A DNA stretch of 64,000 nt, taken from NCBI RefSeq assembly GCF_964275005.1, contig NC_092698.1:29243447-29307446 (forward strand), given 5' to 3'. Of the stretch, positions 15,801 through 18,800 are shown one piece after another. The position numbers and the translations under genes were made by a program. Each line of letters begins with the position of its first letter. Position 1 is the first letter of the stretch. This DNA comes from Diadema setosum. Taxonomy: Eukaryota > Echinodermata > Echinoidea > Diadematoida > Diadematidae. The notes under the pieces were generated by a model. The model saw only the letters and a program-made list of their open reading frames with translations, was not told where the DNA came from and did not search any database.

Positions 15801-18800
15801 ATTGGTGAAGATGAGAATTGGGCTTTTAACTTTTTGCGAGATACCAAGAAAACATTGGCTTATGATATAGTACAGAACATACCATTTTAAGAGGAATTCA
15901 AAGTTATTCAAATTTATGAAGTTCTTCCGTCGAGATGTTTTCATTGCAACTGATTGACAAATTGCCCTACATCGACGTAAATAAGCACTGAATTGATCAG
16001 TGTTTTAGTAGTAGCCATGATAAAAAATCATGGGCGTACATACTCGAGCAGGATTCGAACCCACGACCTCCTGATCACCGGACAGGCGTCATCTCCACTA
16101 GACCACCGAGCTTTCGCCCGACAGCAAGTGTTGGTTCTAATCCTTATAGCATGCAGCGGGTACTGCTTTGTTATTCAAATTTATGAAGTTCTTCCGTCGA
16201 GATGTTTTCATTGCAACTGATTGACAAATTGCCCTACATCGACGTAAATAAGCACTGAATTGATCAGTGTTTTAGTAGTAGCCATGATAAAAAATCATGG
16301 GCGTACATACTCGAGCAGGATTCGAACCCACGACCTCCTGATCACCGGACAGGCGTCATCTCCACTAGACCACCGAGCTTTCGCCCGACAGCAAGTGTTG
16401 GTTCTAATCCTTATAGCATGCAGCGGGTACTGCTTTGTTATTCAAATTTATGAAGTTCTTCCGTCGAGATGTTTTCATTGCAACTGATTGACAAATTGCC
16501 CTACATCGACGTAAATAAGCACTGAATTGATCAGTGTTTTAGTAGTAGCCATGATAAAAAATCATGGGCGTACATACTCGAGCAGGATTCGAACCCACGA
16601 CCTCCTGATCACCGGACAGGCGTCATCTCCACTAGACCACCGAGCTTTCGCCCGACAGCAAGTGTTGGTTCTAATCCTTATAGCATGCAGCGGGTACTGC
16701 TTTGTTATTCAAATTTATGAAGTTCTTCCGTCGAGATGTTTTCATTGCAACTGATTGACAAATTGCCCTACATCGACGTAAATAAGCACTGAATTATTTA
16801 CGTCGATGTAGGGCAATTTGTCAATCAGTTGCAATGAAAACATCTCGACGGAAGAACTTCATAAATTTGAATAACAAAGCAGTACCCGCTGCATGCTATA
16901 AGGATTAGAACCAACACTTGCTGTCGGGCGAAAGCTCGGTGGTCTAGTGGAGATGACGCCTGTCCGGTGATCAGGAGGTCGTGGGTTCGAATCCTGCTCG
17001 AGTATGTACGCCCATGATTTTTTATCATGGCTACTACTAAAACACTGATCAATTCAGTGCTTATTTACGTCGATGTAGGGCAATTTGTCAATCAGTTGCA
17101 ATGAAAACATCTCGACGGAAGAACTTCATAAATTTGAATAACAAAGCAGTACCCGCTGCATGCTATAAGGATTAGAACCAACACTTGCTGTCGGGCGAAA
17201 GCTCGGTGGTCTAGTGGAGATGACGCCTGTCCGGTGATCAGGAGGTCGTGGGTTCGAATCCTGCTCGAGTATGTACGCCCATGATTTTTTATCATGGCTA
17301 CTACTAAAACACTGATCAATTCAGTGCTTATTTACGTCGATGTAGGGCAATTTGTCAATCAGTTGCAATGAAAACATCTCGACGGAAGAACTTCATAAAT
17401 TTGAATAACAAAGCAGTACCCGCTGCATGCTATAAGGATTAGAACCAACACTTGCTGTCGGGCGAAAGCTCGGTGGTCTAGTGGAGATGACGCCTGTCCG
17501 GTGATCAGGAGGTCGTGGGTTCGAATCCTGCTCGAGTATGTACGCCCATGATTTTTTATCATGGCTACTACTAAAACACTGATCAATTCAGTGCTTATTT
17601 ACGTCGATGTAGGGCAATTTGTCAATCAGTTGCAATGAAAACATCTCGACGGAAGAACTTCATAAATTTGAATAACAAAGCAGTACCCGCTGCATGCTAT
17701 AAGGATTAGAACCAACACTTGCTGTCGGGCGAAAGCTCGGTGGTCTAGTGGAGATGACGCCTGTCCGGTGATCAGGAGGTCGTGGGTTCGAATCCTGCTC
17801 GAGTATGTACGCCCATGATTTTTTATCATGGCTACTACTAAAACACTGATCCATTCAGTGCTTATTTACGTCGATGTAGGGCAATTTGTCAATCAGTTGC
17901 AATGAAAACATCTCGACGGAAGAACTTCATAAATTTGAATAACAAAGCAGTACCCGCTGCATGCTATAAGGATTAGAACCAACACTTGCTGTCGGGCGAA
18001 AGCTCGGTGGTCTAGTGGAGATGACGCCTGTCCGGTGATCAGGAGGTCGTGGGTTCGAATCCTGCTCGAGTATGTACGCCCATGATTTTTTATCATGGCT
18101 ACTACTAAAACACTGATCAATTCAGTGCTTATTTACGTCGATGTAGGGCAATTTGTCAATCAGTTGCAATGAATTCAAAGTTTATTTGATGAAAATTGGG
18201 TTTGGAATGACTGAAACATCCAAAAACAAAGTAAAACAAAGCGATCGTAATATAAGTGTGGGTCCCACACTTTATTAGAATTGCTCTTTTTTGGATATCT
18301 CAGCCATTTCAAAACCAATTTTCATCAAATAAACGTTGAATTCTTCATAAAATTACATGCTTTGTCATGTTTCATAAGAGGTTTCTCATTATCTCACCAA
18401 AAAATGTTAGAAACCTGAAATTAGGTCTCAACCAAAACTATATGGTCCCTTTAAAGTTTCATCCAAAACTGTTCACAACTTTTTGAGTTATTTTTCACAC
18501 AGATGAACAAACAAACACGAATGAAAACATAACCTCTTTCTTTGGAGGAGGTACATGTGTGATAATAATTTGCTGTTATATCACTAAGTTATCTCAGATT
18601 ATTTCAAATGTGAGAGTGAAATATGTTATCCTATCTAGCTGTCTACATTCTAAAGAATATTGCAGTGCTTGATACAGTTTCAGAACATGGTGTTTTATCA
18701 GTCCAATATTTGGTTTAGCAAAAATAAAAGATATCCCAATGTTTTGAATGGGTCTTATGCTTAGCTATTTGACATCTTATGCAGTGACCTAATATTGCCC

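What the first reader, a model, noticed from the sequence alone, without database searches (positions are those of the whole stretch)
15895..18180. Eight tRNA-like units in a 3-versus-5 inverted tandem array, inserted as one block with a target duplication
Units of exactly 267 bp, almost without divergence, each hold a 72-nt cloverleaf with perfect Pol III A and B boxes and a T6 run in a short hairpin just downstream. Three units face one way and five the other around a sharp palindrome centre with a 12-nt spacer. The block sits inside a TTAA MITE in RPL23 intron 2, flanked by a repeated GAATTCAAAG. A tandem, inverted multimer delivered to a new site does not fit ordinary SINE retroposition (no A-rich or microsatellite tail). 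Rolling-circle or concatemer insertion is a possible mechanism. This is my best candidate for an undescribed element type.
Basis: partly seen in the sequence, partly recalled or inferred. Interest (0 to 1): 0.8.

Follow-up and report, generated by a model that had tools for sequence, protein, structure and literature searches.

The report
Two-headed tRNA arrays inserted Penelope-style
A short repeat carrying a tRNA-like gene sits in many places of this animal's genome as back-to-back tandem arrays, and the marks at their edges suggest that a Penelope-type jumping-gene enzyme copies one small RNA round and round into both sides of a DNA cut.

Summary
The window array (15903-18173) is one of 43 insertions of the same 267-bp unit that I read in one 913-Mb animal genome. 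In 39 mapped arrays, all 28 two-armed ones are head-to-head with tRNA 3' sides outward. Of 67 outer ends, 63 fall at two sites of the unit, about 39 nt apart. In 25 of 25 classifiable pairs, one end uses each site. Target duplications of 10-15 bp (mode 12) flank 31 of 39. All 28 inner junctions differ, so each array is made anew. Variants are mostly fixed through an array, so most arrays copy one unit. This is the signature of Penelope-like elements (PLEs): start sites one "tail" apart, both DNA strands extended. A GIY-YIG PLE family of the same genome behaves alike: in one search 9 of 9 inverted pairs are head-to-head, 8 with one full-tailed and one tailless end. I conclude that it is a non-autonomous, tRNA-bearing, PLE-mobilised element, copied from a probably circular RNA. 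It resembles animal retrozymes, but no hammerhead was detected and it has Pol III boxes. SINE, LINE twin-priming, DNA-transposon and eccDNA readings fit poorly. The circle, the partner PLE and transcription are inferred, not shown.

The parts
15903..18173 (.). whole inserted array, 8.5 units of 267 bp, head-to-head
15903..16795 (-). left arm, 3.34 units; outer (3') end at unit phase 210 (site P209)
16794..18173 (+). right arm, 5.17 units; outer (3') end at unit phase 173 (site P170)
16786..16795 (.). inner 5'-5' junction: arms start at different unit phases (119 and 129), 2-nt overlap
15894..15905 (+). left copy of 12-bp target duplication GAATTCAAAGTT (last 3 nt also match the unit)
18171..18182 (+). 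right copy of 12-bp target duplication (first 3 nt also match the unit)
16039..16113 (-). tRNA-like sequence with A and B boxes, left arm
   Evidence: boxes by eye
16306..16380 (-). tRNA-like sequence, left arm
16573..16647 (-). tRNA-like sequence, left arm
16932..17006 (+). tRNA-like sequence, right arm
17199..17273 (+). tRNA-like sequence, right arm (17199 = phase 0 in this report)
17466..17540 (+). tRNA-like sequence, right arm
17733..17807 (+). tRNA-like sequence, right arm
18000..18074 (+). tRNA-like sequence, right arm
17285..17290 (+). T6 run in a hairpin, phases 86-91 (one of eight): a Pol III terminator-like signal; its length varies between arrays
17367..17379 (+). inferred RT start site P170 (phases 168-180) shown in one unit; 29 of 67 outer ends fall here
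17405..17413 (+). inferred RT start site P209 (phases 206-214) shown in one unit; 34 of 67 outer ends fall here. The ~39 nt between the sites is the 'tail'
15783..18454 (.). host MITE (TTAAAGGGA...TCCCTTTAA ends, by eye) that carries the array

Best explanation
It is a non-autonomous retroelement moved by the machinery of a Penelope-like element. A GIY-YIG endonuclease/RT, probably a dimer, cuts both strands of a T-rich target about 12 bp apart. Each of the two target 3' ends primes reverse transcription at its own internal site of the element RNA: one at phase ~170, the other at ~209, about 39 nt apart. Both cDNAs run the same way along the RNA. The template behaves like a small circle, so each can pass the same unit several times and make a tandem arm. 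The two cDNA ends are then joined at a random point, in some cases through short homology. The product is a head-to-head two-armed array with one tailed and one tailless end and a ~12-bp duplication. Shown by sequence: the two sites, one use of each per classifiable two-armed insertion, head-to-head order, the duplications, de novo inner junctions, one template unit for most arrays, and the same end rule in a PLE family of this genome. Inferred: that a PLE protein does it, that the RNA is circular, and how it is transcribed and closed.
For: 39 arrays mapped. All 28 two-armed arrays are antisense-left/sense-right, 0 the other way. 63 of 67 outer ends lie at phases 168-180 (29) or 206-214 (34); 25 of 28 pairs are classifiable, 25 of 25 have one of each and 0 the same, permutation p <= 5e-6; 28 of 28 inner junctions are distinct. 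Duplications of 10-15 nt in 31 of 39, 12 nt in 17 of these 31; on the score 77% of the 39 real loci but 0.13% of 780 mismatched flank pairs reach 7. Target 3' ends are T-rich on both strands. Variants in positions covered by at least 3 units (15 nt at arm ends and the T-run left out): 38 fixed in every unit, 61 singletons, 11 intermediate; examples run through both arms. PLE family C of the same genome (RT + GIY-YIG): of 46 matches, 29 end with the tail, 13 about 40 nt earlier, 4 in between; 9 opposite-strand pairs within 1 kb are all head-to-head, 8 with one full-tailed and one tailless end, the ninth with its longer end inside the tail. Four family-C copies read at both ends show duplications of 9-12 bp. 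A purified PLE cleaves and extends both strands from two adjacent internal RNA sites, the interval being the genomic tail (PMC11167929).
Against: No PLE with clear sequence similarity to the unit was found: best E 0.09 over 20 PLE loci, 0.36 or worse over 12 further stretches. The start-region alignment with family C is only suggestive (shuffle p 0.02 to 0.41 in 6 copies). No ribozyme was found in the unit, so RNA closure is unexplained. The T6 run should stop Pol III before the start sites are reached (inference). 8 of 39 arrays lack a duplication, 7 of them one-armed. 4 of 67 outer ends lie elsewhere. A few arrays hold mixed units (L040, L039, L015, L035, L021), which a strict one-unit circle does not predict. 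Of four shorter arrays read later, one (L083) has no duplication and its second, 28-nt arm ends at phase 75. The 38 loci were the best matches to a 2.3-unit query, so short inserts are under-sampled. The 170-nt PLE query ends just past the tail, so ends beyond it would not show.
Confidence: 0.82

Rival explanations
1. Same PLE-type insertion, but the template is a linear multimeric read-through transcript of an existing array, not a circle.
For: L040 carries the same linked pair of changes in one unit of each arm, offset by one unit; L039 and L015 show 3-unit spacing; L035 and L021 are mixed. The authors' scenario for the anole PLE has an mRNA of multiple copies (PMC11167929).
Against: 38 fixed against 11 intermediate variants. 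Variants seen in one array only are fixed in up to 14 of 14 units (L046) and 13 of 13 (L030) across both arms; a copy of a mixed multimer would stay mixed. An arm of 18 units (L028) would need an RNA of about 5 kb.
Confidence: 0.3
2. LINE-type twin priming of a tandem SINE RNA.
For: Head-to-head geometry, target duplications and short overlaps at many inner junctions.
Against: In LINE twin priming the outer end of the inverted arm is an arbitrary internal site (recalled). Here both outer ends are fixed and paired 25 of 25. Duplications peak at 12 bp. No A-rich or microsatellite tail is seen at the ends printed.
Confidence: 0.05
3. DNA-level event: a rolling-circle or eccDNA concatemer joined into a break, or a DNA transposon with array-like inverted ends.
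For: Tandem and inverted multimer with a target duplication.
Against: 28 of 28 head-to-head, two fixed end sites used once each, ~12-bp duplications, and 28 of 28 different inner junctions. An array copied as DNA would keep its junction; a random concatemer should show both palindrome types.
Confidence: 0.03
4. Degenerate or unrecognised animal retrozyme: a ribozyme of unknown type closes the circle, and the tRNA-like part is a late capture. (Compatible with PLE mobilisation.)
For: Unit size, tandem copies, well-paired fold (-81 kcal/mol, z -3.2) and PLE association match metazoan retrozymes (PMC7229834, PMC7761336).
Against: No hammerhead core on either strand of a unit dimer and no Rfam ribozyme at E <= 10 in three units. 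A 2020 review says that retrozymes seem to lack promoters.
Confidence: 0.35

Closest known systems
Penelope-like elements, Penelope/Poseidon type (D. virilis Penelope, Anolis PAc, Adineta Pen2a)
   Same: Head-to-head inverted ends, optional 30-42-nt tail on one end, 8-12-bp duplications, AT-rich target, two adjacent internal RT starts, both strands extended
   Different: No RT/EN gene; a 267-bp tRNA-like unit instead of a pLTR-ORF; many full turns per arm; no hammerhead found
Metazoan non-LTR retrozymes
   Same: Non-autonomous, 150-450-bp tandem units, well-paired RNA, PLE suspected as partner
   Different: Retrozymes are defined by a hammerhead and are said to lack promoters; the word 'inverted' is not in the main text of PMC7229834. 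Here: no hammerhead found, Pol III boxes, systematic two-armed arrays
tRNA-derived SINEs
   Same: tRNA-like head with A and B boxes
   Different: Tandem and inverted arrays, T6 stop inside the unit, PLE-type ends, no A-rich or microsatellite tail seen
Helenus (TRIM with tRNA-like LTR)
   Same: tRNA-like sequence in a non-LINE non-autonomous element (abstract of PMC10886601)
   Different: Helenus has LTRs, PBS and PPT and 4-5-bp duplications; here mostly 12 bp and no internal region between repeats

Membership tests
Insertion by PLE machinery (non-autonomous passenger) | Ends at two RNA sites 30-42 nt apart (the tail) | tested here: met
   63 of 67 outer ends at phases 168-180 or 206-214
Insertion by PLE machinery (non-autonomous passenger) | Inverted copies head-to-head with the tail on one end only | tested here: met
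   28 of 28 head-to-head; 25 of 25 classifiable pairs mixed; PLE family C: 9 of 9 pairs head-to-head, 8 of 9 with one full-tailed and one tailless end
Insertion by PLE machinery (non-autonomous passenger) | Short duplication at an AT-rich target | tested here: met
   31 of 39 arrays with 10-15 nt, mode 12; family C 9-12 in 4 of 4 copies
Insertion by PLE machinery (non-autonomous passenger) | Sequence shared with the start region of a resident PLE | tested here: inconclusive
   E 0.09 at best over 20 PLE loci; start-region alignment ranks 1, 1, 2, 8, 33 and 22 of 267 phases in 6 family-C copies, shuffle p 0.02-0.41
Autonomous Penelope-like element | RT and GIY-YIG reading frame | tested here: not met
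   The 2.3-kb array is made of 267-bp tRNA-like units; no reading frame of 100 aa or more is listed inside it
Metazoan retrozyme | Tandem units of 150-450 bp | tested here: met
   267 bp, 2.3-21.5 units per array in 39 arrays
Metazoan retrozyme | Type I hammerhead in each unit | tested here: not met
   No CTGANGA core on either strand of a unit dimer; no hammerhead at E <= 10
Metazoan retrozyme | Expressed as circular RNA | not testable with these tools
   No RNA data held
tRNA-derived SINE | Pol III promoter of tRNA type | tested here: met
   box motifs judged by eye against recalled consensus; activity not tested
tRNA-derived SINE | 3' A-rich or microsatellite tail, single head-to-body unit | tested here: not met
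   Ends and flanks of 39 arrays
Helenus/TRIM | 4-5-bp target duplication | tested here: not met
   10-15 nt in 31 of 39
Helenus/TRIM | PBS and PPT between LTRs | not tested
   No internal region lies between units of the window array

The most novel reading that the evidence does not exclude
A tRNA-gene-bearing circular RNA parasite of Penelope elements. A PLE dimer loads one small RNA circle; each protomer extends one of the two target strands, one from each of the two start sites, and both run around the same circle in the same direction ('twin rolling-circle target-primed reverse transcription'). Closure would use tRNA processing and ligation acting on the tRNA-like domain instead of a hammerhead.
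Probability: 0.4. Interest if true: 0.88.

Novelty: new variant of a known kind. Interest (0 to 1): 0.74.

Why it matters
How Penelope-like elements insert is little known; a 2024 biochemical study (PMC11167929) says that later steps remain to be validated. These young arrays are an in vivo record of it. They say that the two start sites are used once each, one per DNA strand, in the same event, and that multi-turn copying can follow. They also suggest that PLEs carry tRNA-type passengers that may do without a hammerhead, and so that long palindromic tRNA arrays can be seeded into genes in one step.

Tried and rejected
No match to the unit in viral contigs (two exact patterns), phages or plasmids. 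The own-genome hammerhead search gave 0, but its control rang nowhere, so it says nothing. I thought a hammerhead relic might lie at phases 136-185 or at the tRNA start; neither keeps the core. The hammerhead-style stem at 136-141/180-185 is broken by a fixed 180T>A change in four arrays (L037, L042, L043, L044). Other PLE families of the genome show no similarity to the unit; of these, only families A (L048-L052) and D (L062, L066) were read at the 3' end, which lies in TA repeats. The tRNA part is not significantly protected from fixed changes (2 of 18 fixed against 16 of 57 singletons, p 0.21). 5' stops are only weakly clustered (11 of 67 in one 12-nt window, p 0.02). Arm lengths are uncorrelated (rho -0.22, p 0.26). 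A search for further PLE relatives by protein did not complete.

The 38 loci were clustered by hand from the printed rows (719 candidates, 39 scored, 168 matches, not all printed). Loci L001-L008 overlap the others and were left out. Four further loci (L082-L085) are not in the counts: outer ends at phases 170, 208, 173 and 178, duplications of 9, none, 7 and 11 nt; L083 also has a 28-nt second arm ending at phase 75.

Papers: PMC11167929 outline, parts 1-2 of 4 of the text, plus passages; PMC7229834 part 1 of 6 and passages; PMC7761336 and PMC3846280 passages; PMC10886601 outline and abstract; the rest search listings only. That I found no such element in print rests alone, seen as listings.

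Full report
WHAT IS THERE. The block at 15903-18173 consists of 3.34 antisense and 5.17 sense copies of a 267-bp unit, with a single substitution outside the arm ends. The eight tRNA-like sequences are found by ARAGORN and by Rfam's tRNA model (39.6 bits). ARAGORN calls them Thr(GGT), an anticodon that eukaryotes are not expected to use (recalled), so it is tRNA-like rather than a working tRNA gene. A T6 run in a hairpin follows. The host is a MITE with TTAA-type ends. Its sister copy at 47585-47951 holds the sequence GAATTCAAAG once, so the repeat around the block is a true duplication of 12 bp (GAATTCAAAGTT), with 3 nt of overlap with the unit at either end. The site lies between exons of an L14p/L23e gene.

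GENOME-WIDE. The window's genome is held (912.7 Mb, 102 contigs). A 606-base query gave 719 candidates, of which 39 were scored. I clustered the printed rows by hand into 38 further loci, fetched all 38 and mapped every arm on the unit, with phase 0 at window 17199. 28 arrays have two arms; in all 28 the antisense arm is on the left and the sense arm on the right, so the tRNA 3' sides face outward. The other 11 have one arm. Of 67 outer ends, 29 lie at phases 168-180 and 34 at 206-214; 4 lie elsewhere (88, 100, 220, 251). In 25 of 28 two-armed arrays both ends are classifiable, and all 25 have one of each (permutation p <= 5e-6); all 28 inner junctions are different. At the inner junction 15 of 28 arrays show 0-4 nt of overlap between arms, 6 show more and 7 a gap of 1-38 nt; the inner ends are scattered over the unit. 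Duplications of 10-15 nt flank 31 of 39, 12 nt in 17. The 8 without one are L010, L020, L024, L025, L028, L034, L043 and L045, of which 7 are one-armed. The target shows T-rich 3' ends on both strands, TT^GTT at one. Four shorter arrays read later have outer ends at phases 170, 208, 173 and 178, with duplications of 9, none, 7 and 11 nt; the second, 28-nt arm of L083 ends at phase 75.

ONE TEMPLATE UNIT PER ARRAY, MOSTLY. With 15 nt at arm ends and the T-run left out, positions covered by at least 3 units hold 38 variants fixed in every unit, 61 in one unit and 11 in between. Fixed variants run through both arms where both cover them (for example L030 13 of 13 units, L041 11 of 11, L046 14 of 14). 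So each arm reads the same small template many times, and both arms read the same kind of template. Exceptions are told: L040 has a linked pair of changes in one unit of each arm; L039 and L015 show changes three units apart; L021 and L035 are mixed. These point to multimeric templates in some events, or to later exchange between units. A circle is the simplest reading for the rest; it is not proved.

WHY PENELOPE. Penelope copies show inverted head-to-head pLTRs, 8-10-bp duplications and a 31-bp tail optionally on one inverted end (PMC3846280, passages). A purified anole PLE cleaves and extends both DNA strands and starts reverse transcription at two adjacent internal RNA sites whose interval is the genomic tail (PMC11167929). 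The unit's ~39-nt interval behaves in the same way. To test this in the same genome I took the GIY-YIG hits (51 hits, 150 of 247 candidates scored; 20 loci held). One family (L054, L058, L063, L064; RT and GIY-YIG in Pfam for a 517-aa piece of L054) has 3' ends ~42 nt apart. Its four copies read at both ends show one head-to-head copy with a tail on the left only and a 12-bp duplication with one mismatch, and three one-armed 5'-truncated copies with duplications of 9, 10 and 12 bp. A search with its 3' end (161 candidates, 40 scored, 46 matches) gave 29 ends with the tail, 13 without and 4 in between; 9 opposite-strand pairs lie within 1 kb of each other, all 9 head-to-head. In 8 of them one end is full-tailed and one tailless; in the ninth (C9:35130) the longer end stops inside the tail (counted by me from the rows; three of the four copies above are among the matches, and one end of the fourth). 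The array family and the PLE family follow one rule.

WHAT IT IS NOT. A SINE would be a Pol III transcript with a 3' tail; here the T6 run should stop Pol III at phase ~91, before the start sites, and no tail is seen. LINE twin priming does not fix both outer ends (recalled). A DNA transposon or eccDNA should reuse junctions or give both palindrome types. A retrozyme needs a hammerhead; none is seen, although unit size, tandem habit and fold (z -3.2) fit. I therefore file it as a PLE-mobilised non-autonomous element of retrozyme-like habit, not as a retrozyme.

OPEN. The partner PLE is not identified. Family C's start region aligns best at or near the right phase of the unit, but weakly. How the RNA is made, cut and closed is unknown; tRNA processing at the tRNA-like domain is my guess. 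Fixed changes are concentrated at phases 169-235 (11 of 18 against 14 of 57 singletons, p 0.008), so the start region seems to evolve fastest. Copy number is uncertain: 776 first-look candidates for a 150-base query, 40 of them scored, is not a count of arrays.

Noticed in passing
L039 (arm positions 566, 1369, 2173) and L015 (854, 1657): Unit variants recur three units apart, as if the template had been a trimer; the L039 one looks like a CpG transition and the pattern is not complete, so chance recurrence is possible.
   Followed up: partly
L026 1878-2126: Array with a rearranged centre: two short sense pieces and gaps between the arms.
   Followed up: no
L016, L017, L026, L037, L083: Inner junctions in which both arms start at the same unit phase, giving a near-perfect hairpin; perhaps a different joining route.
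   Followed up: no
window 8657-10282: Long tandem array of a ~166-174-bp GCGAGCGAGC-type repeat.
   Followed up: no
window 51359-52300: Open frame that reads by eye like a non-LTR retrotransposon RT fragment.
   Followed up: no
window 47175-47951 and 34678-34904: Further relatives of the host MITE, at 47 kb as neighbouring or nested copies with repeated TTAAAGGGA ends.
   Followed up: partly
window 61247-63616: TTGACC-rich tandem repeats followed by a CGTACGGA/GACG microsatellite.
   Followed up: no
PLE families A (L048-L052) and D (L062, L066): Their homology ends in (TA)n repeats, unlike the tailed family C; hammerhead-like motifs occur in several of the 20 PLE loci.
   Followed up: partly
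G000:C14:29427117: A PLE endonuclease frame about 120 kb from the end of the window.
   Followed up: no
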